Of a stretch of DNA of 64,000 nt, positions 12,501 through 50,737 are shown in pieces (within the stretch, counting starts at the first letter, position 1; every line of letters begins with the position of its first letter). The stretch is from positions 18,533,542 through 18,597,541 of the forward strand of contig NC_057924.1 of the NCBI RefSeq assembly GCF_018873765.1, written 5' to 3'. The notes under the pieces are model-generated. The model did not search any database, had not been told where the DNA came from, and worked only from the letters and a program-made list of their open reading frames with translations. The translations under genes were made by a program, and so were the position numbers. Source of the stretch: Telopea speciosissima. Lineage: Eukaryota > Streptophyta > Magnoliopsida > Proteales > Proteaceae.

Positions 12501-12519
12501 ATTCCCAAGAATGTCACTG

Positions 12520-13600
12520 GGGCTATGTCTGATCCAAAGTGGAAGCAAGCCATGTCTGAGGAAATGATGGCTCGTGAAAAGAATGGTCCTTGTACATTGG
12601 TAGATCTTCCCAAGGGGAGATTTCCAGTTGGATGCAGGTGGGTCTACACAATCAAGTATCGGTCTGATGGTGAAGTTGAAAGGTACAAGGCAAGGCTAGT
12701 GCCAAAGGGTACAGTTAGGTATATGGGATTGATTACCAGGAGATATTTGCTCCTGTGGCCAAACACAACTCGATTAGAGTCCTTCTATCAGTGGCAGCTA
12801 ATAGGGACTGGCCCTTGTATCAATTGGTTGTGAAAAATGCCTTCCTCCATGTTGACCTGGAAGAGGAAGTATATATAAAACCTCCACCTAGTTTTAAGTT
12901 TCCCTCGGCTGAAGGGAAAGTTTGCCTCCTAAAAAAGGCACTTTATGGTCTCAACCAGTCTCCTAAGGCATGGTTTGAGCGATTTAGACAGGCCATCCTA
13001 AGGAATGGGTATTCCCAGAGTCAGGATGATCACACCTTGTTTATCCGGCGAGGTAATGGCACTATCACAGCACTCATTGTTTATGTTGATGACATTGTGG
13101 TGACTAGAAATGATCAGGCTGAGATAAGTAGATTGAAGTCATACTTAGCCCAATAGTTTGAGATTAAAGATCTTGAATTGTTGAAGTACTTCTTGGGAAT
13201 TGAAATATCAAGATCAAAGAGAGGAATCAATATTTGCCAAAGAAAGTTTGTGTTGGTCTTGTTGAAGGAAACAAGATTGTTCGATTGCAAACCAACAAAC
13301 TCTCCCATTGATCAAAATCACAAATTAGGAGAAGACAGTGGACCTCTTCTTATAGATCCAGGAAAATATTAGAGATCATTTGGAAAACTAATCTATCTTT
13401 CTTTGACTCGTCCAGACATTACTTATGCAGTTGGAGTTGTGGGCCAATTTATATATGCCCCCAAGAGTAGGCACTTGGATGTTGTATATCGCATCACCAA
13501 ATACTTGAAGTCTTCTCCAGGAAAAGGTCTTCTCTATACCAAGCACAACCATTTAAGGATAGAAGGCTACACTGATGTTGATTGGCTGGTTTAGTTTCAG
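12520..13600 (+). pseudogene. Copia reverse transcriptase, frameshifted
   Basis: The reading begins CRWVYTIKYRSDGEVERYKA, shifts frame near 12750, continues LLSVAANRDWPLYQL, and reaches the catalytic YVDD in IVYVDDIVV near 13083. An in-frame TAG stops it at 13154-13156, and another follows at 13370. The order and spacing are those of a standard copia RT, with linker motif YFLGIEIS and LTRPDITYAV. Confidence 0.88.
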
Positions 13601-14036
13601 ACGGACGATCTACATCAGGCTATTGTACATTTGTGGGTGTAATTTAGTCACTTGGAGGAGCAAGAAGCAACCTGTTGTGGCCAGATCTAGTGCAAAGGCT
13701 GAGTTTTGGGCTATGCCTCATGGAGTTTGTGAACTACTATTGTTGAAGAGGTTAGTCCAAGAGTTGGGGTTCGACACTGAAGCACCTATGAGGCTTTATT
13801 GTGATAACAAAGCTACCATAAGTATAGCCCACAATCCTGTGCAACATGACAGAACAAAGCACATCAAAGTGGACCGACACTTCATCCAGGAGAAGATAGA
13901 CTCTAGCTGCATTTGCACTCCTTTTGTGAAGACTGGTGATCAATTGGCGGACATCTTCACCAAAGGGCTTACTTCTCTTCAGTTTGGTACTCTATTATGC
14001 AAGCTGGGAATGCATGACATTTATTTTCCAGCTTGA
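13600..14036 (+). pseudogene. Copia RNase H
   Basis: The reading from about 13575 gives WRSKKQPVVARSSAKAEFWA with the catalytic glutamate, then LYCDNKATISIAHNPVQHDR with the catalytic aspartate, then HIKVDRHFIQEKI and LADIFTKGL near the C terminus. This is the usual end of copia pol. It stops nine bases before the polypurine tract GAGGGGGAG at 14035-14043. Confidence 0.88.
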
Positions 14037-21400: not shown

Positions 21401-21872
21401 CTGTATCCTTTTGCAAGTATTTTTGGCGTGGGACCACTAAGATTATTGAATGATAGATCCCTGTTTAATCACATTAGGGTGAATATTGTAACTGATTTAA
21501 AATTAAGAGAAGAAATGACAATAAGACGAGATAGAACACATACAAGAATAGAAGACCCGTAAGATTAGCAACAGTTCTGGGGATCTGTCCAGAGAACTTA
21601 TTCTTGTTAAGCCGCCTGAAAAATTGCCACAGCAATAGGAAGAAAACATTACATAAATATAAAAGGCTAGCATTACACTAAGTCGTACGAAAATATGTTT
21701 CTCCAATTAAAAGGGAAGACATACTCACAAGGAACTTAGATGAGTCAGAAAGCCCAAAGAGCTAGGGATTTCACCAATAAACTGGTTTCCTGAAAGATCA
21801 AGAGTCCGAAGCTCCAAGAGCTTCCCTATCTCAAGAGGGAGAAGACCAACTATCAGATTATTCTGCAATAAC
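21401..21872 (-). pseudogene. RLK pseudogene LRR exons
   Basis: Three exons, 21729-21872 (144 bp), 21544-21615 (72 bp) and 21401-21460 (60 bp), each begin with the last base of a Leu codon, as in LRR genes whose exons are multiples of one 24-residue repeat. Readable repeats include LRTLDLSGNQFIGEIPSS and LDLSFNNLSGPTPK. With 23068-23139 they give the five-repeat ectodomain typical of subfamily II. No stop codon lies in these exons, so the decay is uneven along the locus. Confidence 0.88.
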
Positions 21873-22469
21873 CTGCAAGAATTACAATGATGTTACTGCA
21901 ATTTCCTTATTGAGCTTTTTACCATGCAAAATGAAAAAACATAAAGGAAAAAAAATGAGATAAGCTAGCAAGTGAAGGATGGAGACTGCCACCAGAAAAA
22001 AAAAATTATTAAAAAAGAAAGCTTGACTTTGTGATACCGAAGAAAACATACAAAACTAAACAATGTATACTAGATCAAGCATACTAACAGAACCTTATTT
22101 AACAATTACTGCAAGTTTTAAGTTTAAACTTGTGTCCTTCAATATTTATTTTATAAACAGAAAGCCCATGCAATAACTTGCAAGAATTACAATGATGTCA
22201 CTGCAATTTCCTTATTGAGCTTTTTACCATGCAAAATGAAAAAACATAAAGAAAAAAAAAATGAGATAAGCTAGCAAGTGAAGGATGGAGAATGCCACCA
22301 GAAAAAAAAAATTATTAAAAAAGAAAGCTTGACTCTGTGATACCGAAGTAAAGATACAAAACTAAACAATGTATACTAGATCAAGCATACTAACAGAACC
22401 TTATTTAACAATTACTGCAAGTTTTAAGTTTAAACCTGTGTCCTTCAATATTTATTTTATAAACAGAAA
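21865..22469. repeat. Tandem duplication of ~300 bp next to an LRR exon
   Basis: Positions 21865-22163 and 22170-22469 are near-identical (a handful of substitutions and one extra A). The duplicated block includes the intron plus the splice acceptor and first eight bases of the exon 21729-21872. The second copy therefore carries a decoy acceptor 305 bases further into the intron (minus-strand sense upstream). Confidence 0.88.
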
Positions 22470-24164: not shown

Positions 24165-25538
24165 TCAGTAGGCTAGAGCCCGAGCCATCCAGAGTTTTGA
24201 TCGGAGCTTCCTTGCTTCTTGTTTAAATCCCGAAGAACGAAGCCCGCAAAGTACAACCCGTTGGTCCGCAGCGAGTACTTTCATGTCTTGTCTTACACAA
24301 GACAGGATTAGCTTGGATGCTGCACGAAACCTTCTTACTTTGCAAAGACCATGCACCATGGAAGAATATGTAAAAGAATCCTTATGCTCCAACTTCTCAA
24401 AGACCTTCATCGCATAATCCACCTGACCTGTCTTACATAACCCATGAATCAAGCAGTTGTAAGCCACCAAGTCTGATTGGAAACCTCTCATCTTCATATA
24501 CTTTAAGTGCCGCAGGGCCCTATCAATATCACCTGCCCTACATAATCCATTAACCAGGATTGTGTGGGTATACTCATCACTTTCCACCCCACCTTTCTCT
24601 ATCTGATCCAACAACTGAAATGCAGTTTCCAACTTACCTTCTTTGCAATACAGATTAATCAAAGCGTTGTAGGAAACTATATCAAGACCAGCCCCACTTC
24701 CCCCCATCTCCCACATGCAATCATTAGCATCTTTTGTCATACCCATTTTAGTCAAAGCACTGATTACAGTGCAATATGCGAAGGCATCAAAGGTATACCC
24801 TTTACTTTTCATCTCTGAAAATATTTCAAAACCTTGTTCAAATTTTCCTGATCTAAAGCAACATTTCATAACAGTAGTATAAGTTATGGCATTTGGCATA
24901 TGACCTGACTCCCCGAGCTCCTTGAGGATCCTTCTCGCTTGCCCCAGCCTGCCTGATTTGCAAAGCCCATCAATAAGAATATTATATGTAACTAGCTCAG
25001 GAAGAAACCCACGACGTTGTAAGCTCCTGAACAACCTAAGGGCACTACTGGCATATCCAGCCTTGCAGAGGCCGTTAATCATGATGTTAAATGTAGCCGG
25101 AGAAGGGGATAGATTGGCCATGATTATATTCTGGAAAATGCCGCTTGCATCCTCTGGCCTTCCAGATTTAAAGAAGCCATGCATCAAAGTATTGTAACTC
25201 CATACATCCGGAAGGATACCACTCTGCAGCATTTCTTCGAACAGATCCAGAGCTTGTGACAGTAGGCGATGTCTGGCAGCACCCGCAATCAAGGAATTAT
25301 AAGTAACAACATCTGGTCTTATCCCAGCTTCTCGCATTCTATGTATAACTGAGTATCCTGCATCAAACCCATCCAATCGGCAATAGGTCGCAATCAACGT
25401 ATTGTAAGTAACAACATTGGGAAGATAACCTAGCCGTATCGCATCAACTAAAATTGTTTCAGCTTTCTCTAATTGCTGAGCTTTACAAAGAGAAGCTACG
25501 CATATATTCAATAAACGAGTAGATAATCTAGAGATCAT
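24165..25538 (-). CDS. P-type pentatricopeptide repeat protein (At5g46680-like)
   Basis: An intronless frame of 457 codons made almost wholly of about a dozen 35-residue PPR motifs, with typical blocks NVVTYNTLIATYCR, DVVTYNSLIAGAAR, ELVTYNILIDGLCKSGR and DSFTYSSMVHGLCK. Such proteins bind organellar RNA one base per repeat and act in mitochondria or chloroplasts on processing or stability. No E, DYW or SMR domain is present, so it is P class. The N terminus MISRLSTRLLN and the length match Arabidopsis At5g46680 as I recall it (about 468 residues), supporting the chosen start. There is no obvious long transit peptide. The frame is intact although surrounded by transposons, which argues for selection. 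The exact RNA target cannot be read from sequence. Confidence 0.93.
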   Translation of the reverse strand: MISRLSTRLLNICVASLCKAQQLEKAETILVDAIRLGYLPNVVTYNTLIATYCRLDGFDAGYSVIHRMREAGIRPDVVTYNSLIAGAARHRLLSQALDLFEEMLQSGILPDVWSYNTLMHGFFKSGRPEDASGIFQNIIMANLSPSPATFNIMINGLCKAGYASSALRLFRSLQRRGFLPELVTYNILIDGLCKSGRLGQARRILKELGESGHMPNAITYTTVMKCCFRSGKFEQGFEIFSEMKSKGYTFDAFAYCTVISALTKMGMTKDANDCMWEMGGSGAGLDIVSYNALINLYCKEGKLETAFQLLDQIEKGGVESDEYTHTILVNGLCRAGDIDRALRHLKYMKMRGFQSDLVAYNCLIHGLCKTGQVDYAMKVFEKLEHKDSFTYSSMVHGLCKVRRFRAASKLILSCVRQDMKVLAADQRVVLCGLRSSGFKQEARKLRSKLWMARALAY

Positions 25539-25929
25539 TCTTAGCAGGAAAGCTCAATAGAATACCAAATATGAATCATAATCCATTACATGAGATAGAA
25601 GGGAACATTCCATGTCAAACGCATTCAAGAAACAAAATTTCTTTCTCCATAGAACACGGACCAATAAAGGCATGCAAATCCAATCATCCCGGTGATTACA
25701 TTCGCATAACCAAGTTTGCCCACCAAACCCACAACAAGGTTTAAACAAATCGAACCCAAAAATGACGGTGTATCTTATCAAAGACATAATAAGGCGGCAT
25801 GGAGCAACTGAAAAATGAAATCAATCAACCAGCAACCTGCGACACTGACGCTGGACTTATCAAAATACTTGAGTTCCTAACGATCACACTCTTCTTCAGT
25901 CTCTCTGTCCAACTAAGTACGCCATTCAC

Positions 25930-29574: not shown

Positions 29575-30400
29575 TTAATGCATGATCCCAATCCCCTATT
29601 TATCATATATTGACAATGTTATCCACATCCATACACACACACATGTATCTCCCAAAACCCTATGTCACCAAGACACTAGCAAGAAGGGCTGAGGAAACCT
29701 TCGTCCCGGAGGACCGCGGTACTTACACACAGGCTTCGAGACTGAATATGAGGGAGCTCCAACAGGGCTTAATATAAAGCCAATACCTCCATAACAAGAG
29801 TTCAGATGTATTGAAGCATCCTCCATTGATTTTGATGAAGCCAGGAGGGGGTAAGGTTCAAAGTCGGGGACCACTCATGGTTTATAAAAATCAAGTCATT
29901 GCGCACCAACAAGTACCAAATCGACCTCGACAGATCCTTGATCGATTTGATGGAGCGACTACAGGATCAAAAAATATGGTCGGATTGGCCGATCCGATCC
30001 TTAACCGATCTGACAGAAGTTTTTTTGGATTTTTTTAATTATTTTTATATTTTTTTTACCAATACCAACTGAAATTGGCTGATCCAATCCAAATAATAGC
30101 GACCAATCAAATCCCGAGATCACAACACCCCACCAACTCTGGCTGATACATGACTCAATCCAAAAAAAAAATGATTTTGGGGGTTTTTTGACTGATCCGA
30201 TCCCCATCCAGAAAGGTATCGACCATGATCGATACTGAGTCCGATACCTGGATTTTGAACCTTGGGTTGGATGTTTCTGCAGGTTCCAACGTAGTTAATT
30301 CCCACAAGGCCATCTTTGAATCACAGGAATCACTCGTTAAGATCTACCACTATACAAATTTCACCAAATGTAACATGAAAAATTCCATGATGTTCAGACT
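29575..30400. other. Intergenic with GATC/GATACC-rich repeat debris
   Basis: Positions 29930-30260 are rich in GATCCGATCC and GATACC words like those of the hAT MITE family at 56462 and 59371, but I could not define ends. No gene was seen. Confidence 0.4.
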
Positions 30401-30639
30401 TTAATATTTGGGAAATTTACGAAATACCCCTTGAAAATGGGGCGATACTCAGATCACCCCCTCAAATTTGAAAATACTCAAATCACCCCCTACATTAGAG
30501 CCCTATACTCAGATTAGTCCCTACCGTTAGTTAAGTGATGAAGTCAACTAGTTATATTTTTTTAAAATCCTAAACTGCCCTTGACCATTATATAATTACT
30601 ATTTTACCCTTTAATCTAAAAACCCCAAAATCTATCTTC

Positions 30640-30900
30640 TTCCTCACACTCTCTTCCTCACTTGACCTGCAACTCAATCTCAAGTAGACGAGTCCCCGTG
30701 GTCTTCTTCCTCACAATCCAAAAAATGGCTTGCAGTTGCACCCAAAAACTGGGTCTTGGGGCTGTTGACCTCCACTAGCTCTCTCCGGCCACTGCCATAG
30801 CATGGAACCAGCATGGCGAAACTGTTCTTCGTCTCATCGTCACTCAAGAAATCAGGGGCGTGGGCTTCAACCAACAGCCACCCAATCAAATGAAATAAGC
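30640..30900 (-). other. Possible second captured fragment in the Pack-MULE
   Basis: A 69-codon minus-strand frame (NSFAMLVPCYGSGRRELVEV) lies between the left inverted repeat and the SPS fragment. A third gene-like piece lies at 31758-31944, where the minus strand reads GTLRAMKVEKPLEEQAMALV. GC content is higher than in the surroundings, as in coding DNA. I recognise neither product; they could be captured exons or chance frames. Confidence 0.35.
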
Positions 30901-31113
30901 ATTTTCAGATTCAAGTCTACAGAAAAATAAATTTACAGATTTGAATTGGTTTTCTCTTCTTGTCTGTCTTTCTTTCTGCATATTAGAGACATACTTGGAT
31001 ATCTAAGCTCATGTAATATTTCGTGTTTTCTTCTGCAACCAGCATTTCCTGAATATAGCGACACTACAGGCGAATTCTTTTTGGAAATAATTTGATTCTT
31101 TTGGGTTGTGGAA

Positions 31114-31757
31114 AATGGCTGGGAATGAGTGGATTAATGGGTACTTGGAAGCAATTCTACATAGTGGGGCGGGCTTCGGCAATCGAGGAAAATAAGCCAT
31201 TGCAGGTTAACCTGCCTGAGAGTGGCCATTTCAACCCAACCAAGTACTTTGTGGAGGAAGCGGCCATAGGGGTTGATGAGACAAACCTCCATCGTACATG
31301 GATCAAGGTCGTTGCCACCTGCAACACTCATGAACGTAGCTGTAGGCTTGAGAACATGTGTTGGCGAATTTGGCATCTCGCCCACAAGAAGAAACAGGTT
31401 CACAACTCTCCATTTCTATCTATTTATTAAATGATTAGAGAAACTGTTCTTATTGTTTGTTCCTGTGAAAAAAAAAAAAATTCAATCCAAGTCTGAGAAT
31501 GTTTGTTTGTGGGGGTGATTGAATAGTGAGAATGGGAAGATTTACAACGAATAGCAAACAGGAGATTGGAGCGGGAGCAGGGACGGAGGGATGCAATGGA
31601 AGACATGTCTGAAGATTTGTCTGAGGGTGAGAAGGGGGATACCATGGGTGAGCTGGTGAGTTGTGAGACCCCAAGGAAAAAGTTCCAGAGAAAATTTTCC
31701 AACCTTGAAGTGTGGTTTGATGATAACAAGGGGAAGAGACTGTACATTGTCCTCATC
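31114..31757 (+). pseudogene. Captured sucrose-phosphate synthase fragment inside a Pack-MULE
   Basis: From ATG at 31114 the reading is MAGNEWINGYLEAIL, the conserved SPS N terminus. A 4-base insertion then shifts the frame; the other frame continues ESGHFNPTKYFVEEA, DETNLHRTWIKVVAT and RLENMCWRIWHLAHKKKQ. An intron (about 31400-31536) follows, then WEDLQRIANRRLEREQGRRD, MSEDLSEGEKGDT, FSNLEVWFDDNKGKRLYIVL and IS, where similarity stops and unrelated sequence begins. SPS makes sucrose-6-phosphate from UDP-glucose and fructose-6-phosphate in the cytosol. This copy covers only the first ~190 of about 1050 residues and lacks the catalytic domains. The retained intron shows DNA-level capture, not retroposition. 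Confidence 0.92.
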
Positions 31758-32315
31758 AGCGTCCGACGAAAACCAGAGCCATTGCTTGCTCTTCTAGTGG
31801 CTTCTCCACCTTCATTGCCCTTAATGTACCAATCAAGCTCCACTGGTCGACGGCGGCGGCACCATGGATCCAAGAGATAGAGGGCAGGGCTTGGAGGCGG
31901 TGAAGGGCACGGCTCCGGTGCCGGTGCTGGAGAAGGTGAAACATTTCAGTTCTTCACCACACTTGATTTTTGGGGTTTTTTGATAAAGGGTAAAACAGTA
32001 ATGGGTAAATTGAAGAGCAGAGGAGGCTGGTTGGGGAAGGGCAAGTTGCAGAGCAAAGGAGGGGTGGGGGGCTACTGGTCGACGAGGGAGAAGAGAGGTT
32101 GCCGCCTCTGGAGAGAGAGGAAAGGGTGGGGTATTTTAGGTTGAAGATGAAGGAAAGGGTAGTATTGTAAATTTAATTCTAAAGTTTAAGTACAAGGCTA
32201 AAATAGTCCTTTTACAACAATAATTAACAGCAGACTAACACCGTTAATGTAGAGGGGGTGATCTGAGTATCGCCTCATTTTCAGGGGGTGTTTCATACAT
32301 TTCCCTAAATATTTT

Positions 32316-32868
32316 CTCAAGTTATATCTGTTCTAAAAAAATAAAGTTACATTACATTTAAACTGCAGAACCCATAGGACACAACCGGGTTCATTTGTTC
32401 GAAAATTAAGCCATCAAAATTTTTACTAAATTTATGAGTTGCAACTCATCAAAATGGTTGAGAAAAAAGCGGGGGAGAGAGGAAAGGCTTACACAACTTA
32501 TGAATCAATCCAATAAAATGCAAGAACTAATGTAGCAAAATGAATAAATGAACTTTTCCTAATTTTTTCATCAATGTTGTCACATCTATCTTCTGATTCA
32601 GTGTATATTTGTAGACACTTCCTTTCAATGATTAAGCCATATAACAAGTGGCTCAATATTTTGTATCATACTATCATGTTCTGTGGTTTTGCTTTTAGAT
32701 TTTTTTTTAGAGAGGGAGGGGGTGGGGATGAATTTTTTTTATGTGTAATGTTGACCCTCCCCTTCCATTCAACCACTTCAGAGTTGTAAATAGATCTGGA
32801 TATCTTTACACACTGATGAAAAAATAAACTCATTAAAGATTTGATTGGGAGGAGGCAGTTGATATTTG
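32316..32868. other. Intergenic, no gene recognised
   Basis: AT-rich spacer between the Pack-MULE and the stray kinase exon; nothing recognised. Confidence 0.5.
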
Positions 32869-33185
32869 TCATCTGGGCCCAAACAACTCCATGGCTTCAA
32901 TGATGAATGAAGATTCTTCATGAACATCACTGTAATTTCTGGAGAAGCCATATTCCTCCCTCCAGAAAAATTCCCAAGTTGCTCTTCTTCCAAATGTCTA
33001 GACTGACCAACCACACTTTCCAGGGTCTTCAGTACTTCTGAGATCTTCGGGCGGAGGCTTGGATGAGATTGAGTACACAACAAAGCAACCTCTATTGCTT
33101 TATCCAGTTCTGACGCATCAAAACATCCATTAAGATCCCTATCTACCATCACTTCCAGTCTCTTCTCCTCATACAAAATCCTAAC
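32869..33185 (-). pseudogene. Stray last exon of an At5g45780/CIK4-like receptor kinase
   Basis: After the acceptor ATTTATGCAG the exon reads VRILYEEKRLEVMVDRDLNG, AIEVALLCTQSHPSLRPKIS, EVLKTLESVVGQ, the C-terminal part of the kinase domain (subdomains X-XI, with the conserved Arg in LRPK). A frameshift after the Ser-Pro-Glu-Ile residues moves the family's C terminus (YSDVHEESSFIIEAME then Gly-Pro-Arg, stop at 32869-32871) into another frame; in the original frame translation runs on to 32778. Its 5' phase and first residues fit exactly onto the exon that ends at 5041 with ILDW, yet it lies upstream of that gene's first exon. No other kinase exon is found at higher coordinates. Confidence 0.9.
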
Positions 33186-34101
33186 CTGCATAAATTTGGT
33201 AGGTATTATTGTTGATGATTGATGCAATGAAAAGTACAATAGAAATTATGACGTTAGAGCTTTTGATCTCCCCCCTCATTTAACAAACTGTAAACATTAA
33301 TAGTGTGAGTAAAGAAAGTCAACAGAATTTTTTATAGACAAAAGTAAGATCATGGAATAAAAAAGGTTTCATATGACTAGATTGTGGAGCAATGAGAATT
33401 CATGTGACAATTCACAATTTTTCAAAACGTCTAATGAAGCTGCTCTTTTTTAATTTCCAAAATTTTGCCTTGAAAAAATGCTCCCAACAGTTCTTTCTCC
33501 CATACAAACTTGTGGCAAATCCCTTCCCAACATGCACTTAATATGAAGATGGCATGAATTGCAGCAATCCTCACAATCAGATGATCCTCCAATTTTGGTC
33601 AAAGGTAGGAAGGTCAGAGAAACAAATAATATCAGAAAATAGGCAATCAAATTTTTTTTTGGCTATTCAAAAAAAGAAATGCTCTTATGAGTTACTACTG
33701 TGGTGTTTCAGTTGCAAGGTCCTAGGTGGTGATTCCTATGGCTGGTTGGTGGTGAAGCTGACCTAGGCTTAGTGGTTATACCAAGTCATATCCCCTCTAC
33801 TTTTCGCCCACCTCCTTTCTCTTTCTCTTTGTTCTATCTTCCTGTTCTGTCAATTCTAGCAACATCCTTCTAATGCTATCCTAATCACCCAACAATAGTG
33901 ACTAGGAATCCAAAGAAAATCCAGACCCGCAAGGATAGGTAAAGACCAAATTTGAAGGAAAATCAGTAACTCACAGTTCTATGACCAAATGAACTGGAAA
34001 CTCTAATTTTCACCCAAAAAAAGGTAATGTATTCCTAGGTTTGAATAATCAAACTAGGAACCAGTAACCAGGATCTAATATGAACAGGTAGTTCGACAAG
34101 G
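33186..34101. other. Intergenic, no gene recognised
   Basis: I searched this stretch on the minus strand for further kinase or LRR exons that would belong to the stray last exon and found none. A T-run lies at 33650-33659. Confidence 0.5.
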
Positions 34102-40433: not shown

Positions 40434-41137
40434 TGTTGCGTGTGAAAACCTCCGATGCTTGGTTTGCCCACGGATGAGCCTGCAAAAACCAAGCGATGAG
40501 CACAAGAGAACCAGTGTGGCTCCGGCCTAGGACTCTCCGATGCTCAAGTCAGGTCTCCAATGCAACAGCGTAACTGCGTAGTAAAAAGCCAGATGATCGA
40601 TGGTGTTCCATACCTGGGTATTTATAGAGTGAGGAGGAGATGAGGCGGTTGGGAGAGTCCTAGTATGGTAGGAGTCCTTCTTTCGGAAGGTTCTCCCCCG
40701 AATAGCGGGGTGGAGAGCTATTTTCGGGGTCGGACTCTTATTAAGGTAAGAGTCCATGTAGAGTGTGATTCCGTGTTGCACTGGGATCATGGCTCGATCC
40801 TTATCCCGTGACTCTCGGGATGTGCTGACGTGGCCCGGAGGTCCCTGGTGGGGTGCTATGGCAGCTTCAGTGGAGGAGGGCTTCGGCCTCGGAGGTAGGC
40901 CCAGGGGGGTCGGCAAGGGAGGTCGGCCCGAGAGGTTGGTCTCGGCCAGGAGTCTATGGATGACCTGTATGAGCTTGGCCTCAGCCACCGGCTAGCTCGC
41001 TCGAGTCTGGCTCTGTCAGGTGACTTATCGGAGATGGGGTCGGCCCGGTCTCCTGCTCGGCCCAACTCTGTTCTCGGACTGAGGTCGGGTCAGCCATGTG
41101 GCAGCCTCTGATAGGAGGGGTGTTTTATGCCTCATCA
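40434..41137 (-). repeat. Tat element 3' LTR
   Basis: The 704-base partner of 50738-51466. On the minus strand it is preceded by a polypurine tract (GAGTGGGGGGCCTG, 41138-41151) and starts TGATGAGGC. The minus-strand TATA box is at about 40618-40631. Confidence 0.92.
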
Positions 41138-41393
41138 CAGGCCCCCCACTCATCAGGGGTCGGCTCGGCACTGATGAGTGAAATTTCCTGGTTTGCTTGT
41201 CTGGAAGATTTTTGTGGTCGAGCCGAGCTTATTTTTTGCCGCGGATTTGACGTTACACGTTCTGATGGTTGGGTGTCAGTGTCACGTCAGCAGAATCATT
41301 ATGACAGGCTCAGGAATTCGAAACGTCCTTTGATCTGGGCCGTTGAACCATGCTGAGCTCTGATCGGCCGTTGGATCATTAAAACCCAAGGAT

Positions 41394-41401
41394 TATAAAT
41401 A
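41394..41401 (+). promoter_or_regulatory. TATA box of the antisense gene in the Tat element
   Basis: TATAAATA on the plus strand lies 178 bases upstream of the chosen ATG at 41579, with a pyrimidine-rich region (ATTCATTCCTCACTGCTC) about 20-40 bases after it as a plausible start site. It lies outside the LTR (which ends at 41137), so the antisense gene appears to have its own promoter. Confidence 0.6.
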
Positions 41402-41578
41402 GGCAACTCGTAACTATTCATTCCTCACTGCTCTAAGTTATTGACTTCTCGGCAAGCTTGGATTCTTCAGCTCGGTAGCGCTCGGTGTTTACTTGTTCGT
41501 GATCAGCTCGGCCTTTGCTTCGTTCGCGCTCAGCTCATCCTTAGCCCTTCTTCAACCAATAAGTCTTCTCCGCCCAGT

Positions 41579-43886
41579 ATGTCAGTTGGTAGTAGTCCTA
41601 TGGGCGAGCTCTTTACCGGGGCAGCAGAGGGCGCGAGTCCGAGCCGACAGCTCCCTGCTCGTTCTCCCACCATAGACCTGTTGGGCTCGACCTCGGATGA
41701 ACCCGATATAGTGGAGCTTCGTCAGGCCGAGGTGGCCGAGTCTCCGTTACTCTTGGAGTTTGACCATGCGGCCCACCCAATCGCCACAGACCGAGCCGAG
41801 AGCCCTGGGTCATCCTCATCCGATGAGGAATCAAGTGAGGGAGATTCATCCAAGGTGGGGGTTGGCTCGGTCAGCTCGTCCGCTGACGCCCCTGAGCCAG
41901 AGGAAGGTAGTGTCGGCACCATTCCGAGCACAATCACGGAGGCCGACCTTGACTATCTGAGGATGACCTATGCCATCCTCGAGGACATTCAGCTCCGAGT
42001 TCCTAACCCCGGGGAGATGGCCTGCTTCATCAGGCCCGACGAGGTGGCTTTGTACGAGACGCCCTTCAAGTATGCGTTCAGGCTCCCCGTTCTTGGCCTG
42101 GTGGACCAGATCTTGGACCACTTCCACCTGTCTCCTGGTCAGCTGGTGCCGAACTCTTGGCTGGCCGTCTACGGCTTCTACGCCTTATTCTGCGAGATGG
42201 GCCGAGGTGCGAGCGTGGCGCTTTTCTCTCGGCTCTTCTTCTTGAAGAAGTCTCCCGAGAAGGGGTGGTACTATTTCTGCCGCCGATCGGGGAAGAGTGC
42301 GGCTCTGGGCGGCCACAAATTTTTGGTCGTCACACTGACCTTCAATAAGTATTGGAAGCCTCATTTTTTCTTCGCTTCCATTCCCAACAGCCCTCTCCGA
42401 ACCGAGTGGAAGGAGATGAACTTGAATTACGTCAATAGGGTACTACCCCTGACCGAGAACGAGATGACCTCGCTTGACCTGATCCTCCAGCGTCCGCCCT
42501 TCGATGTCCTCCAGCTTCAGGATGAGGGGTTTCTTCAGAGGTGGCATATGACCCCTGGTAGGAGCCCGACCCGAGCCCGTCTCTGTTGTTCGAGCTGACC
42601 CCTTTACTTAATCTTCTTTTCTGTTTCTACTTATTTTTTATGTTCTCGATTTCTCTTGCAGTGGTTGGCCACATTCCCCCTATGGATACAGCTCGGCTAA
42701 GGGCCGAGACCCTTGCAGATCGAAGGAAGAAGAATATTAAGAAGAAGTCCCGGGGTGAGTCTTCCAAGGTCCCCAAAGGCAAGGCTGTGATGCCGGGACC
42801 GTCCGACGCTGTAGTCGGCCTTGAGGCCGAGAAGAATACGGGCCCAGCGGGGTCCCCGAGGAAGGGGAAAGGCCGAAAAGGCGAGAGGAGCCCGCCGAGA
42901 GACATCAAGCGTTAGAAGCTCTCGGTCAATCTGATGAGTGGTGGTCTTCCGCCCGTGGCTTCACCCACCAACATCTCTCGATACGTCTTGGGGAGGGCCT
43001 CGGCCAGCAACGTTCCTGTGAGGCCGACCTGGCGCCTCTTCCCAGGGGACTCGGCATTGACGTCGGCCGCACACGCCAAAGAATGGCTAGATGCAGGTCG
43101 GCTTCCAACCGACAAGGAGAAGCTAGAGGTGCTGCCTGACCCCGAGCTCCTCTCCACTCTGTTCCAAGATTTCAACATGGTAATTTTTCTGGTTGGCTTT
43201 TGTGATTAGATATGATCTGTGTAGTCTGTCTTGATTTTTGTTCTCATGCTCTTTTGTAGGGATTCGCCAAGGCAATGGAGACCATGCTTCGCTTTGAGCG
43301 GCTCCTGACCGAGAACCATTCCTTAGGCGTCCAATGCAAGAAGGCCTATCAGGATGCCCAGGATGCCGTTCAGAAGCATCGAGAGACCCAAGAGAAGCTC
43401 ACTGCTGTCGAGGCCAAAGTGGAGAGCTCTCAGGCCGAGGTGATCAGGAAGAGAGAGAAGGTCCGGGCTCTGCAGGTTCAGCTTGCCGAGGTGAGGGAGA
43501 AGGCCAAGGAAGATCTGGCCATAGCTCGGGTCGAGGCGGTCAGCGACTATCTCCAATCGGAGGAGTATGCTGATGTGTGCCATGAGATCAGGAAGCCTCC
43601 CTACGCCGAAGGTTTTGAGGCAGGCCGAGCTGAGCTTTTGGCCGAGATCAAGGCGACGTACCCTGATCTCAATCTCTCCCGGTTTGATGATGACGCGACT
43701 ACCTTCACCGGGGAGTTGGGAGATGAGGAGGGAGCCGAGGTCACCTAGGTTCTGCCCTTTGAGGAGCCTACTCAGGCCGACGTCTTCCCTCTGGATGCTA
43801 GATCAAAAGACCCTCCTGTCGAGCCTACTGCCGTGGACACCGCCGAGGTCGCCTCCAAGTCCAACGTCGAGGAGACCGAGATGTAA
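41579..43886 (+). CDS. Antisense spliced ORF of the Tat element (putative gypsy-type transposon domain protein)
   Basis: Exons 41579-42557, 42662-43179 and 43260-43886 join in frame across GT-AG introns of 104 and 80 bases, giving 707 codons before TAA at 43884. TAG codons interrupt it at 42913-42915 (codon 411) and 43746-43748 (codon 662), each where CAG would fit. Residues about 1-120 are Ser/Glu-rich. About 125-330 form a globular region (NPGEMACFIRPDEVALYETP, LPVLGLVDQILDHFHLSPGQ, WLAVYGFYALFCEMGRG) like the Pfam family named putative gypsy type transposon (PF04195). Then comes a Lys-rich, nuclear-signal-like part (KKNIKKKSRG), and exon 3 forms a long coiled coil (MLRFERLLTENHSL to LAEVREKAKEDL) with an acidic tail. 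Extra ORFs, some antisense, are known in Tat elements; their function is unknown. A possible poly(A) signal AATGAATGAAAAAA follows at 43950. Confidence 0.82.
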
Positions 43887-44304
43887 AATTTTTTTTATTT
43901 TTTGGGGCCGGATTGCCCATCTTGTAACCATGCCGATCAGTCGGCTTATAATGAATGAAAAAATCTATTTTTGCCAGAATTTGTCTAAGTGTTTTAGCTC
44001 GGCGCTCTTAACCTTCTTTTCCTTGTGTACTCTGTTCTATTTGTGGCCGAACTGCCGAGTCGTTTTGCTAGCCGAGCTTAGGAACTTGTCTCTTTTTTGC
44101 CCATGCCTCACGTGGTCGCCGTGCGGCCATGCCATGCCCGAGGTCAATGTGATCCTTGCCTTAGTTGGTTAATTCGGTTCCTTTGGTCCGATTGGGCTAT
44201 CATATAAACGGATGCGTGGCCGAGCATCCTTCCTGGCCGAGCTTAATGCCTTAGCTTAGTTTTGAACTTTGTTAGGCTCGGCCAAAAGGGGGATGTTTGC
44301 TCTT

Positions 44305-44672
44305 GAGAGGTCGGCCAGGTCTATGAGAACCGGTCTTACGACTTAGCTGCTGACCTATGAGGGTTGGTCTTTGAGGTCGGCCAGGTCTATGAGGGCCGAT
44401 CTTACGACTTGGCTGCCGACCTATGAGGGTCGGTCTTTGAGGTCGGCCAGGTTTATGAGAACCGGTCTTGACGCTGGCTGCCGACCTATGAGGGACGGTC
44501 TTTGAGGTCGACCAGGTTTATGAGAACCGATCTTACGACTTCTGCCGACCTATGAGGGTCGGTCTTTGAGGTCGGCCAGGTTTATGAGAACCGATCTTAT
44601 GACTTGGCTGCCGATCGATGAGGGTCGGTCTTTGAGGTCGGCCAGGTTTATGAGAACCGGTCTTACGACTTT
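44305..44672. repeat. 66-bp minisatellite, six copies, inside the Tat element
   Basis: Units begin GAGGTCGGCCAGGT, continue CTATGAGAACCGGTCTTACG, then GCTGCCGACCTATGAGGG and GGTCTTT. They start near 44307, 44373, 44439, 44504, 44568 and 44634; spacing is 64-66 bases. The array lies between the 3' end of the antisense gene and the end of integrase. Tat and Ogre elements often carry tandem repeats in this position. Confidence 0.88.
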
Positions 44673-44761
44673 GATTTAGGAGCTTGCAAATACGTTAAGT
44701 GGTGGACGAAGACTTTATTGAATCAAATGTCGGAGCTGAAGCCGAATACAATCATTCTCAG

Positions 44762-46087
44762 TTATTGGAAAAACTTCTTCAAATTTTTCGAGTTCCAAGG
44801 TCTCGGTACCTTCTTGCCCCCTAGAGTCTGCAAGCGATACGTGCCAAGGCAAATTTGCTTGGAGACTATGTACGGGCCTTCCCAATTTGGTGCTAACTTT
44901 CCTTACTGCCTCAGCTGGGATGCGCTAAGCTTTCTGAGAACAAGGTCCCCTTGACGGAAGTGCCGCTCTTTTACTCTTGAGTCATAGTACTTTGCCGTCC
45001 TCTGTTGGTATGCCGCGTTTCGGAGTGGGGCATTTTCTCAAACTTCATCGAGGAAGTCAAGGTTGGCTCTCATCCATCTTCATAGGTCTTCTCATCGAAG
45101 TTGAGCACTCGTGCGATGAGGCCATAATTTCAAGCGGGCAGGGCTTCGATCCCATAAGCGAGGTGAAAAGGACTCTCCCGGTTGGAGTTCTTCATGTCGT
45201 CCGATATGCCCATAGGACACTTGGGAGTTCTTCCACCCATCTCCCTTTGGCCTCATCTAACCTTCTCTTAATGCGGCGAGTAATGTTCGGTTGGACACTT
45301 CTACTTGTCCATTTGCTTGTGGATGAGCTCACGAGACTGGTCGAAAGTCAATGTAGAAGTGTTCGCAGAACTCTCGAAAGGCCGGGTTGTTGAATTGGGT
45401 GCCATTATCGGTGATGAGCACTTTCCGTAGTCCGAACCGGTAGATGACCTTGTCTCGGAAGAATTTCTCCATGTTCTTCTTGGTGATGGTGGCAAGGGGC
45501 TCACCTCGACCCACTTGGTGAAGTAATCAATCGCCACTACCACATACTTTACGTTCCCCGATGCCGGGGTGAAATCTCGAGAATGTCCATTCCGCACATA
45601 GTAAATGGGATTGGGCTCAGCATTGAAGTCAACTTTGTTGCTTGGTAGGCTTGGGATTGGTGCGAACAGTTGACACTTCTCGTGCGTCTTCACATACCTC
45701 ATGGCCTCTTCTTGCATTCTTGGGCAATAGAATCCTTGCGAAGTATCTTGTAGCAAGAGCTTGGCCACCCATGTGACTCCCGCATATTCCCTCATGCACC
45801 TCGGCCAATGCATACTCGGCCCCCTTTGGTCCAAGGCATCGGAGAAGAGGGGTCGAGATTGCTCTTTTGTAGAGCACTCCATCGATCATGGCGTACTTGG
45901 CGGCTCGGATCTTGACCTTTCTCGCTTCGTCTCGGTTCTCCGGGAGCAGGTTATTCTCCAAGTAGTTGACAATGGGGTCCAACCAGGTCGGCCCGTCCTC
46001 TTTAATGTGCTTTACGCTTTCTTCTTGTAAGGAGGGCTTCTCCAAGATTTCTATGTATACTGACCAGCTCAGATATTGGAGGTCAGC
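44762..46087 (-). pseudogene. Tat integrase, frameshifted
   Basis: The zinc-binding part reads EVHEGICGSHMGG. After a frameshift near 45735 it continues YVKTHEKCQLFAPIPS. The core shows VVVAIDYFTKWVEV, a frameshift near 45510, then VLITDNGTQFNNPAF. A TGA follows at about 45330 just before AHPQANGQVEVSN. The C-terminal region keeps NWEGPYIV (GPY/F module) and ends at TAA (44762-44764). Additional stops are present between 45240 and 44860. The family product inserts element DNA into chromosomes. Confidence 0.88.
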
Positions 46088-46824
46088 CTAGGCCAACCTG
46101 GATAGGGAGTCAGCCGTGGCATTTTCTTTTCTCGGTATTCGAGTCATCTTAAAGTGCTCGAGTTTGAAAATCAGATCTCGGGCTCGGCTCAGGTAAGCTA
46201 TCATCCTTTCGTCTTTCGCTTCATAGTCTCCGTTGACCTGGTGACCACGAATTGGGAGTCTCCTCGCACCTTCCACCGCTTTATGCCCATTGCTTTACTG
46301 ACTCGAAGCCCAGCTAGAAGGGCTTCATACTCAACCTCGTTGTTCGAGGCAGGAAACTTGAACCTCAGGGCATATTGGATCAGAAACCCTTCGGGGCTTA
46401 CCAGTATCAGGCCGACCCCGCTTCCTTTGGAGTTTCTTGAGCCGTCGACATTCATGGTCCAAGTCGGGTCGACCGTAGCCCCGACCTCTTCTACTATCTT
46501 TTCCTCCCCGACCTTAAGGTCGGATCCAGTGCATTTGGCGATGAAGTCGGCAAAGGCTTGTCCTTTTATCGCCGTCCTCGGACGATAGCTTATATTGTAT
46601 TCACTTAGCTCAACCGCCCAGGTAATCAGCCATCCCGAAATGTCGGGTTTGTGCAATATCTTCTTGAGTGGCTGGTCGGTCAGTACCGCGATCGGATGAG
46701 CTTGGAAGTACGGCCTTAGTTTCCTTGCGGCCGTAATAAGAGCAAATGCTACTTTCTTGAACCCGGAGTACCTTGTCTCGGCATCGACAAGAACGTGGCT
46801 GATGTAGTATATGGGTCTTTGAGT
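46088..46824 (-). pseudogene. Tat second (archaeal-type) RNase H
   Basis: After the connection segment (ITWAVELSEYNISYRPR, AFADFIAKCTG) the second RNase H reads WTMNVDGSRNSKGSGVGLI with the first Asp, NNEVEYEALLAGL with Glu and VRGDSQFVV with the next Asp. A frameshift near 46245 moves the end (DERMIAYLSRARDLIFKLEH, ATADSLSRLA) into another frame. This extra domain is a hallmark of plant Tat elements. Confidence 0.9.
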
Positions 46825-46829
46825 TCAAC

Positions 46830-48066
46830 TCTCTTCCTTGATCAACACCGCGCTGACCGCTACAGGGGTAGCGGCTAAGTAGACTTGAAGCTCCTCTTTT
46901 GGTTCAGGTCGGCTGAGGAGAGGCGGGTTCTCCAAATATTTCTTCAGCTCTTCAAAAGCTTCTTGGCATTCGTCCGACCAAATGAAGTCCTTTGGGTTCC
47001 GGATATTCTTAAGGGCCTTAAAGAACGGTAGGCACTTGTCTCCCGATCTCGACATGAATCGTGCCAATGCCGCCACTCGTCCATTTAGCCTCTGTACTTC
47101 TCGGATCGTCCTTGGCGGGCTCATCTCTTGGATGACCCTGATTTTTGTTGGATTGGCTTCGATGCCTCTGACAGAGACCATGAAGCCGAGAAACTTTCCC
47201 AAAGTCACGCCGAATGCACATTTGGCGGGGTTCAGCTTCATTTGGTTCTTCCTCAATACACCAAAGGCTTCTTCCAGGTCGGCCAAATGGTGTTCGGCCT
47301 TCAAACTTTTCACCAACATGTCATCCATGTAGACTTCCATGTTCCTTCCGATCTGCCCGCAGAATATATAGTTCATGAGGCGCTGGTATGTCACTCTGGC
47401 GTTCTTCAATCTGAATGGCATGACCTTGTAGCAGAAATTTTCTTGGTCAGTTCAGAATGCCGTGTATGACTCGTCCTCCTCATGCATCATGATTTGGTTG
47501 TAGCCAGAGTACGCGTCCATGAAACTCAGCATCTCGTGACCTGCCGTGGCATCGATCAAGAGGTTAATCCGAGGTAGTGGGTACTCATCTTTTGGACAAA
47601 CCTTGTTGAGATCGGTGTAGTCGACACACATTCTCCACTTCCCACTCGGTTTAGGGACCATGGCGACGTTAGCCAACCAGGTCGGGAATTTTTCTTCTCG
47701 GATGAACCCTGATCGGCGAAGCTTCTCCACCTCTTCTTTTATCGCGGTTTGTCAATCAAGTGCGTAGTTCCTTCTCTTCTGCCGGATTGGTTTTCGACCC
47801 GGATCTACGTGGAGTTGGTGCTCAGCTATACGTCTGGGTATGCCTATCATGTCGGCAGCCGACCAGGCAAAGACATCGGTGTTCGCCTTCAAGAAAACTC
47901 CGAGCTGATTCCTTTGATTTTCATTTAGTAAAGATCCGAGCTGGACCACCTTTGCTGGGTCATCTTCGCTGAGATGAAATGGGGTCAGGTCTTCCACGGG
48001 TCGTCCTCTCCTCTCGACAAGCTCATCCTGCTGATCCTCGGGGAGATGCTCGACGCACATTGCCAT
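46830..48066 (-). pseudogene. Tat reverse transcriptase and first RNase H
   Basis: The reading runs DVFAWSAADMIGIPR, then MVPKPSGKWRMCVDYTDLNK, YPLPRI, SFMDAYSGYNQI, then the catalytic VYMDDMLVKS near 47325, and KCAFGV...FLGFMVS. The RNase H domain starts with FIWSDECQEAFEELKKYL and PELQVYLAATPVAVSAVL-like sequence. All pieces share one frame. TGA stops at 47752-47754 and about 47450 both sit where family proteins have Trp, and another TGA at 46825-46827 sits before TQRPIYY. This enzyme copies element RNA into DNA. Confidence 0.92.
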
Positions 48067-48141
48067 TCCTCGGACATTACCCTTATTTTGCTTTACGAAA
48101 GTAGCGTAGCACTAGCACTCGTTCTCGGGGGGGCTTCATCT

Positions 48142-48945
48142 TCAAGTGTCGGGAAGAAAAAGGGCCCGGTATGGGTTGAAAGCCACTACCGACAGTACCA
48201 CCATGACTTTGACTTGAATCGTCACCTGGCATGGAGCTCGCCCCATTGTGACCAGCAGGTCGATTGAGCCTTTGATGGTCGCGACAGCTCCCGAGAACCC
48301 GTGAAGTGAGGTGCCTTCTGGGTTGAGCGCTTCGTCGCCGAAGCCAAATTGTCGGTACGCTTCTAGTGATATAAGGTCCACGGATGCACCGGTATCAACC
48401 AATACACGATGGACGGGTCTGTTTGCAATTTCTACCTGCACCACTAAAGCATCATCATGAGGTAAACTTATACCTTCAAGGTTGGCTTCGGTGAAGGAGA
48501 TCGTCGCCGCTGGTTTGACTCTCTTGGTGGGCATCTCGGCCACTCTGATGAACGGTGCGTTTGCCTTAGCCTTTCGAGTAGTCTCTTGGCCGAGCCCCCC
48601 GAGGATAGTGTATATGGGAGCCCCCTTGTTACTGCTCGGCCCGGATCCGTCCTCTTTCTTCTTGGCTTGGACTTTATCATCATCTCGTTCGACTCGCCTA
48701 TTTTTGACCCTAGGCTCGGCTCTTCTGTGATCTCGTTCTTCAGGCCGCCGACCTCCACGCTCTTCTCGGCCTCCTTTGACATATCGCTTCAAATGACCCG
48801 CTTTTATCAGCTCTTCAATTTCTCTTTTTAGCTGATAACAATCCTCGGTGTCGTTACCTGTGTCCTTGTGGAACTGACAATATTTGTTGGGATTTCGAGA
48901 TGACCCCGCTTGCATCGATCGGGGTCGGCGGATGTACCCCCCGTC
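48142..48945 (-). pseudogene. Tat zinc-knuckle-like linker and aspartic protease
   Basis: It begins with a Cys/His cluster (YCQFHKDTGNDTEDCYQL), then a basic region, then the protease active site VLVDTGASVDLIS at about 48385-48405, which would cut the gag-pol polyprotein. Downstream of FMVV-like sequence the frame reads into an atypical tail ending at TGA (48142); family proteins have more sequence here before reverse transcriptase, so a deletion or frameshift is likely. Confidence 0.85.
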
Positions 48946-50667
48946 CTATATTTGTATCAAGATCTCCTTGTGCGAGGTGTTCAGTGGGGTGTAGTCGGGG
49001 CATCGAGCTCGGTCTGACCTATCAGCTCGACGATCCATCCTGGGCCGTTTATCTTCCCTACGATCTTCTGTTGTCGGCCTTTTCTTATCGGGCTGGGCTT
49101 CGTTTCCCTTCCGGGCCTGGAGGACCTCGACCATATTTGCAAATTCATTGCATCTTTCTAAGAGTTCGGCCAGGTTTCTGGTCAGCTTCCGGGCCAAGTC
49201 CTTGATGAGGTCCATGTCGGCCAATCCATTGCTCATAGCCGTATGGGCCGTGGCCTCATCCAAATCCTTGATATCTAAGGATTCCTTGTTGAAGCGGGAG
49301 ACGAATGCTCGGATCGATTCGTCGGGCCTTTGCTTCACGCTGAGGAGGTTGATCATTGTCTTCTTGTGTTTCATACTGCTCTGGAAGCGCGTGACGAATG
49401 CTCGACAGAGTTGAGCGAAGCTTTTTATAGAGTTCGGCGGCAACCAGGAGAACCATGAGGTCGCCGCACCCTTGAGGGATGCGGGGAAGGCTCGACAAGA
49501 AACGATCTTGGTTCCCCCGTACATGGTCATCATCGCATTAAAGTAGTTGATGTGATCGATCTGGTCGGTCGTCCCGTCATATCGGTCAAACGGGGGAGGT
49601 TTGAACCCGTTTGGTAGTGGCGCGATCATGATCTCAGGAGGATATGGGTGTCGCCCGACCAACGAATAGGCTTCCGGGGTCGCTTGTTTCTTCAACCCCT
49701 CCACTTGCTCCGCCAAGTCTCGTAGCCACCTCTCCAGCTCTGTTCCAGGCGCTCGGCCAACCGGCCCCTCGGTCCGAAGTCGGTAGGGTCGACCGTCCCG
49801 TTGTGGTCGGCCGTTCTGGTCAGCTCGATCCTCACCGTCCTTCCTTGTTCTTCTTTCCTCCTGGAAGTTGGACCCACGGGGGCTCCCCTACTGTTCTTCT
49901 CGGGCAGGCGAGCCTTAACGCCAGGGGTTATGATGAGATCCTTCTCCTTGTCTCGCAGCGCATCATTCATTCGCTTCTTTCCCTTATTCTCAGACTCTTC
50001 TCGGCTGTTCGTCCTCTCCGAGCCGCCCAAAAAATATCGACCTCCTCGCTACCGAGACGGCTGGTTCAATTTCCTGCCTTGTTCGCGGGCTTTGGCGATG
50101 CTCTTGCTCATCCCGCCGAGCGCCTCTACTAGGGCGTGGAGGTGGAGTCTTCTGACAAGACGGGTGTGAGGATGCGGCTCGGCTAGGTTCGGCCCTATGC
50201 CCGCCACCATGCTGCAAGTTCCTCTCTGCACGGACCAGAGCTGGAGGGGGCACGGCCAGTGGTTGGCCCATCAGCCCACCTCCGGCCATCTGGTTCATGA
50301 AGGTACGCAGCATCTCGTTGGTGTGGAGCATCTGCAACTGCAAGTCCATAACCTGTCGATTATTTGCCCGGGCTTCGGGGTCCAAACTCTTAGGCAAGTG
50401 TGGCGGCGCTGGTAGGCCCATCCCGTCCAAGCTTGGCTCGGCCTGTATCCGTCCAGCCGCGGCCGTGGTTAGTACCGCTCCCCCATTCCCGCCCTCCGGT
50501 GGGGGAATGGTGCCCGTGATGGGCTGCACACCCCCTGCCCGAGGGGGTCTTCTGTTTATCCCCTGCCGAGAGGCTTCGGGGGGCGGTGATCGCCTCGTCT
50601 GCCCAACGGGTTGTGGCTCGTCTGTCCGAGAAGTCGAGCCATGCTGCCCTGACCTCGTGTGCACCAT
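48946..50667 (-). pseudogene. Tat gag, frameshifted
   Basis: The likely start is the Met of MVHTRSGQ at 50667. The N-terminal part is Pro/Gln/Arg-rich. The frame shifts near 50020 and back near 49740 (the reading resumes at LAEQVEGLKKQA). The capsid-like domain follows: PFDRYDGTTDQIDHINYFN, TSWFSWLPPNSIKSF, LLSVKQRPDESIRAFVSRFN. The frame ends at TAG (48946-48948) just before IRRPRSMQAG, in the same frame as pol, so gag and pol were probably one frame and this stop arose from a CAG codon. Gag packages element RNA into cytoplasmic particles. Confidence 0.85.
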
Positions 50668-50715
50668 TATTATTGCTCTTGGAATTGGTAGAAACGACGA
50701 TGCTTGTCGATGTCG

Positions 50716-50737
50716 TTCCCACAGACGGCGCCAAATC
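50716..50737 (-). other. Primer-binding site of the Tat element
   Basis: Directly inside the 5' LTR, after a three-base spacer, the minus strand reads TTTGGCGCCGTCTGTGGG. The TGGCGCC start complements a tRNA 3' end ending GGCGCCA, the usual arrangement for priming minus-strand DNA synthesis in Tat-type elements. I do not assign the tRNA. Confidence 0.8.

What the first reader, a model, noticed from the sequence alone, without database searches (positions are those of the whole stretch)
30410..32306. Pack-MULE that captured the N-terminal exons of a sucrose-phosphate synthase gene
Seen: Mutator-type inverted repeats of more than 60 bases, a 9-bp target duplication with one mismatch, and inside them two SPS exons with the intron between them, ending abruptly after the Leu-Ile-Ser of the N-terminal domain. 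Known: Mutator-like elements can carry host gene pieces (Pack-MULEs), best studied in rice. Inference: because SPS is dosage-sensitive, a transcribed fragment could affect the parent gene; at least one more captured piece on the opposite strand may make this chimeric.
Basis: partly seen in the sequence, partly recalled or inferred. Interest (0 to 1): 0.78.

Follow-up and report, generated by a model that had tools for sequence, protein, structure and literature searches.

The report
Jumping gene carrying sucrose-phosphate synthase exons
A plant jumping gene of the Mutator type carries a copied, now broken start of a sugar-making enzyme gene plus an older piece of another gene; it is a clear and well traceable case of a known phenomenon.

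Summary
The element spans 30410-32305 (1,896 bp), with 54-bp terminal inverted repeats (49/54 identical) and a 9-bp target duplication with one mismatch. Inside lie leader, exon 1, intron 1 and exon 2 of sucrose-phosphate synthase (SPS). The assembly (G000, 823 Mb; probably Telopea speciosissima) shows five SPS loci. The donor is one on C7 (95%, window 30890-31759). A second copy of the element, with the same cargo and junctions, sits on C6 with a perfect 10-bp duplication, so it moved after the capture.

It is chimeric. The left arm holds an older minus-strand fragment of another conserved gene, found in 15 copies. A right inner arm belongs to a second MULE subfamily. A 7.9-kb element with matching ends encodes MuDR-type transposase pieces. 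Both SPS copies are frameshifted and differ from each other at Ka/Ks 0.96. The Pack-MULE reading is supported; an effect on SPS dosage is untested. One oddity: the right breakpoint falls exactly on the exon 2/intron 2 border, probably by chance. New member of a known kind.

The parts
30401..30409 (.). left copy of the 9-bp target-site duplication, TTAATATTT
   Evidence: 8 of 9 identical to the right copy
30410..30463 (+). left terminal inverted repeat (54 bp core)
   Evidence: 49/54 identical to the right one; 50/54 identical to the left end of the transposase-bearing C8 element
30410..30889 (.). left arm shared with the MULE family (family A)
   Evidence: up to 30887 at about 83-93% identity in many copies
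30738..30873 (-). older captured fragment of a conserved plant protein gene (Protea homologue P0121); the protein match spans 30713-30886
   Evidence: 91% DNA identity to a C4 gene; 15 of 19 genome matches to P0121 lie in MULE copies
30890..31759 (+). captured SPS segment (870 bp) from the C7 SPS gene
   Evidence: 95% identity, 3.46% substitutions
30890..31114 (+). SPS 5' leader, upstream of ATG
   Evidence: alignment to donor
31115..31397 (+). SPS exon 1, frameshifted by a 4-bp duplication at 31167-31174
31398..31526 (+). SPS intron 1, GT and AG retained
31527..31759 (+). SPS exon 2, first codon TGA; ends exactly at the donor's exon 2 / intron 2 border
31760..32001 (.). right inner arm shared, in inverted orientation, with five elements of a second MULE subfamily (family B)
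   Evidence: L029-L033 are 90-93% identical to the C6 copy and 85-88% to the window copy here
32002..32305 (.). right end of family A type; 32000-32270 is 97% identical to L012
32252..32305 (-). right terminal inverted repeat; shorter than that of the C6 copy
32306..32314 (.). right copy of the target-site duplication, TAAATATTT

Best explanation
It is a non-autonomous Mutator-like element carrying host DNA (a Pack-MULE), and a double one. SHOWN by sequence: a MULE family whose left arm already carried a 136-bp fragment of a conserved gene acquired an 870-bp piece of the C7 SPS gene (leader to end of exon 2). Intron 1 is present, so DNA rather than spliced RNA was copied. The piece is joined to an inner arm of another MULE subfamily and an A-type right end. 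The finished element stands at two places, C9 (window) and C6, with different target duplications. INFERRED: the piece was filled in by template switching during repair of a break inside a MULE, and the element was moved in trans by transposase of its family, for which a 7.9-kb element with matching ends is the best candidate source. It now decays without sign of coding constraint between the copies. Any present effect would be through transcripts or small RNAs matching the SPS donor; this is open.
For: TIR and TSD. SPS match on raw DNA. Donor on C7, 95%; the donor gene goes on to exon 3 and to model position 1051. Second copy on C6 with the same two junctions and a perfect 10-bp TSD. In a left-arm tree of 14 copies C9 and C6 pair, UFBoot 97. 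Of 17 delimited relatives 10 have a perfect 9-bp TSD and 1 (C6) a perfect 10-bp TSD. 348 TIR-core sites with up to 3 mismatches against 0 for the reversed pattern. C8 element whose left end is 97% identical over 100 bp to that of the C6 copy, with DBD_Tnp_Mut, MULE and SWIM matches. Older fragment: 15 of 19 genome matches lie in MULE copies, 2 are gene loci, 2 elsewhere. A relative carries an NFD4-like gene piece. Decay: Ka/Ks 0.96 between copies, separate frameshifts.
Against: No empty site shown. Six of 17 delimited relatives lack a perfect TSD, the window's TSD has one mismatch and the C6 one is mostly a run of A. The right inverted repeat is shortened. A tree of right ends does not resolve C9 with C6 (support below 50). 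Against the donor, Ka/Ks is 0.38 (C9) and 0.21 (C6), with fewer amino-acid changes than neutral expectation (P 0.03 and 0.02); I read this as constraint on the donor branch, since the two copies compared with each other give 0.96. No microhomology at the right junction and an untidy left one, so the repair step is not signed. The C8 transposase lies in separate open pieces; its activity is not shown.
Confidence: 0.95

Rival explanations
1. Truncated SPS pseudogene or segmental duplicate that happens to lie between two unrelated inverted repeats.
For: The SPS piece is broken (frameshift, TGA) and 95% like one gene.
Against: The same cargo with identical junctions and the same ends occurs at a second place with a different target duplication; homology to the donor stops at both junctions, where MULE-family sequence begins.
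Confidence: 0.02
2. RNA-mediated capture: the segment runs from near the transcription start to the 5' splice site of intron 2, as a splicing intermediate with intron 1 retained would, and was copied into the element from RNA.
For: Right breakpoint exactly at the exon 2 / intron 2 border in both copies; left breakpoint just after a CT tract 229 bp upstream of the donor's ATG. The transcription start itself is not known.
Against: Intron 1 is kept and no poly(A) stands at the junction. With about 20 splice junctions in a 5.7-kb gene (my count) an exact border is roughly a 0.35% event per breakpoint, not compelling alone. A sister element's NFD4 capture starts inside an open frame and ends exactly after a stop codon, a point that no RNA processing marks, so exact feature borders do arise by chance.
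Confidence: 0.04
3. The element is a functional regulator: transcription through it makes small RNAs that lower expression of the donor SPS gene, retained by selection.
For: 362 of 847 24-mers of the C9 cargo occur exactly in the donor locus, 18 of 847 in the C3 paralogue locus; captured sequences of maize Helitrons, Pack-MULEs and Sireviruses are reported as siRNA reservoirs that can silence donor genes (passage in PMC13317346).
Against: No expression data here. The copies differ from each other at Ka/Ks 0.96 with about 2% private change each, so no coding constraint between them; RNA-level constraint was not measured.
Confidence: 0.08

Closest known systems
Pack-MULEs of rice, tomato, sacred lotus (non-autonomous Mutator-like elements with gene fragments)
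   Same: Inverted repeats, 9-11-bp TSD, no transposase found inside, host exon and intron sequence, donor elsewhere in the genome, more than one copy. Sacred lotus is reported to have 1,447 (passage in PMC4053705).
   Different: Host probably a Proteaceae plant; the one held paper with both Pack-MULE and Proteaceae is the lotus genome. The captured part is hardly GC-richer than the rest of the donor gene (0.418 against 0.406), unlike the tendency in Oryza (PMC4858842 passages).
Chimeric MULE-derived genes of Oryza with two or more parents
   Same: Fragments of two unrelated genes in one element; PMC4858842 gives 5-10% of MULE-derived putative genes (passage).
   Different: Here the two captures can be ordered: the first is in 15 copies, the SPS one in 2.
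MULEs with multiple or tandem TIRs (tomato PM-ZIBP, PMC3310237)
   Same: Parts of different MULE copies joined in one element (passages).
   Different: The window element has one pair of ends; the family B arm is present without its own terminal repeat.
TE-carried sucrose-metabolism gene pieces (PMC4663468)
   Same: A rice Pack-MULE with a UDPGP fragment, and other TEs with SuSy and SPP pieces, are given as examples (section 6 read).
   Different: The section read names no SPS example in a Pack-MULE; the counts in its figure were not seen.

Membership tests
Mutator-like element (MULE superfamily) | Long terminal inverted repeats | tested here: met
   54 bp, 49/54 in the window copy; C6 right end against window left end 83 columns at 95%. 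Below the 100 bp used in the tomato curation (PMC3310237 passage), so at the short end.
Mutator-like element (MULE superfamily) | 9-11-bp target-site duplication | tested here: met
   8 of 9 in the window; perfect 9- or 10-bp in 11 of 17 delimited relatives, not in 6
Mutator-like element (MULE superfamily) | Ends shared with an element encoding MuDR-type transposase | tested here: met
   C8:59348578-59356469: left end 97% over 100 bp to the C6 copy, 50/54 to the window; PF03108 2.7e-11, PF10551 6.1e-9, PF04434 4.8e-9
Pack-MULE | Non-autonomous: no transposase inside | tested here: met
   1,896 bp; the four longest frames (100-172 aa) are SPS-derived pieces, the antisense frame over them and a right-arm frame; the 172-aa frame has no Pfam match at 0.001. 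Not every frame was scanned.
Pack-MULE | Carries a fragment of a non-TE host gene whose parent lies elsewhere | tested here: met
   SPS parent on C7; second parent on C4
Pack-MULE | Capture at DNA level (introns kept) | tested here: met
   Intron 1 present and alignable to the donor
Pack-MULE | Mobilised with its cargo | tested here: met
   C6 copy with identical junctions and a different TSD
Pack-MULE | Empty site in a related genome | tested here: inconclusive
   Only the own genome could be searched; no paralogous empty site for the window copy; the C6 test did not complete
Pack-MULE | Preference for GC-rich acquired sequence (a tendency, not a requirement) | tested here: not met
   Captured 0.418 against rest of donor 0.406
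Retrocopy | Introns removed | tested here: not met
   Intron 1 kept

The most novel reading that the evidence does not exclude
Capture by this MULE family is steered by transcription: the SPS piece corresponds to a nascent or splicing-intermediate unit (near the transcription start to the 5' splice site of intron 2), hinting that RNA or an R-loop at the donor gene supplied or positioned the template.
Probability: 0.04. Interest if true: 0.8.

Novelty: new member of a known kind. Interest (0 to 1): 0.36.

Why it matters
It is an unusually complete record of gene capture outside grasses: donor, both breakpoints, a sister copy, an earlier capture in the same lineage and a plausible transposase source are all in one assembly. 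It gives an order of events (first capture, family spread, SPS capture, two insertions) and a ready set of breakpoints for testing how Pack-MULEs acquire DNA. A link to SPS dosage would matter for sugar metabolism but nothing about it was measured.

Tried and rejected
Considered and rejected: plain SPS pseudogene (C6 copy); retrocopy (intron kept); opposite-strand frame 31427-31945 as a gene (172 aa, no Pfam match at 0.001); coding function of the SPS piece (frameshifts in both copies). Pfam and PDB gave nothing for the SPS N-terminus; NCBIfam did. Five fetched transposase loci (L040-L044) showed no such TIR within the 3.3 kb held of each, which does not exclude it further out; the partner was found through the TIR pattern. 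The other pair fetched then, L058, has no open frame of 120 aa. The exact 24-base TIR pattern gave 8 sites, the looser one 348 (the list shown stops at the first places). No empty site for the window insertion; the same test for the C6 copy did not complete. L026 was dropped from the TSD count because only its left end was found; L029-L037 were not counted for TSD; L024, L025, L027 and L028 were left out of the left-arm tree. A script with a syntax error was repeated in corrected form.

Not done: expression, small RNA, methylation, comparison with other Proteaceae genomes. The host name is an inference: assembly size against 823 Mb in a table of PMC13080361 (passages; that table lists 11 scaffolds, this assembly has 1,287 contigs, of which C1-C10 are 63-88 Mb), and a Protea homologue.

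Full report
Observation. The window copy runs from 30410 to 32305 (1,896 bp). Its ends are inverted repeats of 54 bp with 49 identical positions (local score 83; best of 300 shuffled pairs 31), flanked by TTAATATTT and TAAATATTT. Between them, raw unmended translations hit the plant SPS model TIGR02468: 31176-31397 at 3.9e-29 (model 24-93) and 31530-31826 at 1.5e-24 (model 95-177). A typed read-through hit model 1-176 at 1e-72 and 311 of 329 candidate proteins at E 0.001; among the 120 listed, those with an organism named are plants. Exon 1 carries a 4-bp GGGC duplication and exon 2 begins with TGA, so the piece cannot encode the SPS N-terminus as it stands.

Genome. The window lies in G000 (822,943,500 bases, 1,287 contigs) at C9:18533542-18597541. 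Telopea speciosissima is listed with 823 Mb in a table of PMC13080361 (passages seen); I infer that host. TIGR02468 marks five SPS loci (C7:25.02, C3:71.52, C7:22.25, C2:62.29 and C7:6.78 Mb) and two places with N-terminal positions and no later exons: the window and C6:46.08 Mb (64 matches, 44 of 66 candidates scored). Further matches in that list, at late or middle model positions on other contigs, were not examined.

Donor and junctions. The C7:25.02 Mb gene matches window 30890-31759 at 95%, continues into exon 3 and to model position 1051, and aligns in blocks to its C3 paralogue from L009 3532 to 9662. At the left junction the element changes from family sequence to ATGAAATAAGC, which in the donor follows a CT tract 229 bp before the ATG. 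At the right junction the donor reads CATCAG|GTAATC, the element CATCAG|CGTCCG, and family B elements mostly CTTGATCTT|CGTCCG: a blunt join exactly on the exon 2 border. With about 10-11 exons in 5,731 bp (my count), a random breakpoint would fall on a splice border about 0.35% of the time.

Second copy. C6:46079195-46081120 (L010) has the whole element, the same junctions and a perfect 10-bp duplication, TTAAAAAAAA, which is low in complexity. It lacks the GGGC duplication and the TGA but has its own 1-bp deletion at codon 3. In the cargo the copies differ from the donor by 3.46% (C9) and 3.69% (C6) and from each other by 4.29%; C9 has 18 private changes, C6 17, and at 2 sites all three differ. 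Ten sites are shared by the copies against the donor; at 6 the paralogue agrees with the copies, at 3 with the donor, at 1 with neither. So few changes separate capture from the split of the copies. Ka/Ks between copies is 0.96; against the donor it is 0.38 (C9, P 0.03) and 0.21 (C6, P 0.02), which I put down to constraint on the donor; donor against paralogue is 0.10 with Ks 0.61. At a generic 7e-9 per site per year (recalled) the 2% private change per copy is about 3 million years; woody plants may be slower.

Family. The same search scored 40 of 2,917 candidates. Of 17 relatives that I delimited, 10 have a perfect 9-bp and 1 (C6) a perfect 10-bp duplication; 6 do not. Most share the left arm to about 30855-30887 and the right end from about 32039, and they differ inside. 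The TIR core with up to 3 mismatches occurs at 184 + 164 sites, the reversed control at 0. One pair, C8:59348578-59356469, is 7,892 bp long; its left end is 97% identical over 100 bp to that of the C6 copy, and it encodes DBD_Tnp_Mut, MULE and SWIM matches in three neighbouring open pieces; its own duplication is 8 of 9. It is a candidate, not a proven, source of transposase. The genome gave 150 MULE-domain matches, 150 of 828 candidates being scored.

Chimera. The minus-strand stretch 30738-30873 is 91% identical to a gene locus on C4 whose Protea homologue is P0121. Of 19 genome matches to P0121, 2 are gene loci, 15 lie in MULE copies (window, C6 and L026, of which only one end was found, included) and 2 are elsewhere. 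This capture is therefore likely older than the SPS one. Segment 31760-32001 occurs, inverted, behind an end of five other elements (L029-L033), and 32000-32270 is 97% identical to L012. So the element is a mosaic: family A left arm with capture 1, SPS capture, family B arm, family A right end. A left-arm tree of 14 copies pairs C9 with C6 (UFBoot 97); a right-end tree of 18 does not resolve them. Another member, L014, carries 1,030 bp of an NFD4-like gene from C3:34.08 Mb (95%), starting inside the open frame and ending exactly after the stop codon. That second exact border has no conceivable processing signal and warns against reading much into the SPS one.

Mechanism. Copying of DNA rather than spliced RNA is shown by intron 1. 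Filling of a break by template switching is a favoured idea for such elements (PMC8277862, passages, which finds microhomology at one or both breakpoints of 67.6% of animal cases). Here the right join has none and the left join is untidy (a shared ATG with a few altered bases), so the mechanism is inferred. Nothing was measured about transcription. The cargo shares 362 of 847 24-mers with the donor locus, enough to make small-RNA cross-talk possible but not shown.

Known or new. Pack-MULEs, multi-parent chimeras (PMC4858842 passages) and TE-borne pieces of sucrose-metabolism genes (PMC4663468 section 6) are in print. Searches for Pack-MULE with sucrose-phosphate synthase (1 and 2 papers), with Proteaceae (1 paper) and for Mutator-like with Telopea (0 papers) found no report of this element; of these papers I read passages or a section of PMC4663468 and PMC4053705, and only the listing of PMC8211194. 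It is a new member of a known kind.

Noticed in passing
window 5023-5445 (-) and 32781-33245 (-): A receptor-kinase exon at 5 kb (Pkinase 2.7e-24) and, by my reading, a C-terminal exon of such a kinase at 33 kb (no Pfam match), on the same strand but in the wrong order; tblastn found no other copy of either in the window. Displaced exon, second gene fragment or assembly issue.
   Followed up: partly
window 40434-51466: LTR retrotransposon with reverse transcriptase on the minus strand; its two repeats of about 700-730 bp are 94.4% identical.
   Followed up: partly
window 11967-14036 (+): Frames that read like a decayed Copia-type polyprotein (integrase, reverse transcriptase, RNase H); my reading, no family search.
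   Followed up: no
window 21864-22469: Tandem duplication of about 301 bp, 97% identical.
   Followed up: no
window 24165-25553 (-): Pentatricopeptide repeat protein in one 462-aa open frame.
   Followed up: partly
window about 30110-30264: Left flank of the element is part of a dispersed repeat (40 matches besides the two own flanks, 40 of 451 candidates scored).
   Followed up: partly
L014 (C4:57518251-57520177): Sister Pack-MULE with a 1,030-bp NFD4-like transporter gene piece that ends exactly after the parent's stop codon; pieces of it also match the places of L024, L036 and L037.
   Followed up: partly
L057 (C8:59348578-59356469): 7.9-kb MULE with matching ends and transposase pieces, plus a GRF zinc-finger frame on the minus strand, possibly itself a captured gene.
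   Followed up: partly
L022 (C1:80839754-80848346): Family member whose ends lie 8.6 kb apart, with frames between them that read like a nested Copia-type element, and a perfect 9-bp TSD.
   Followed up: no
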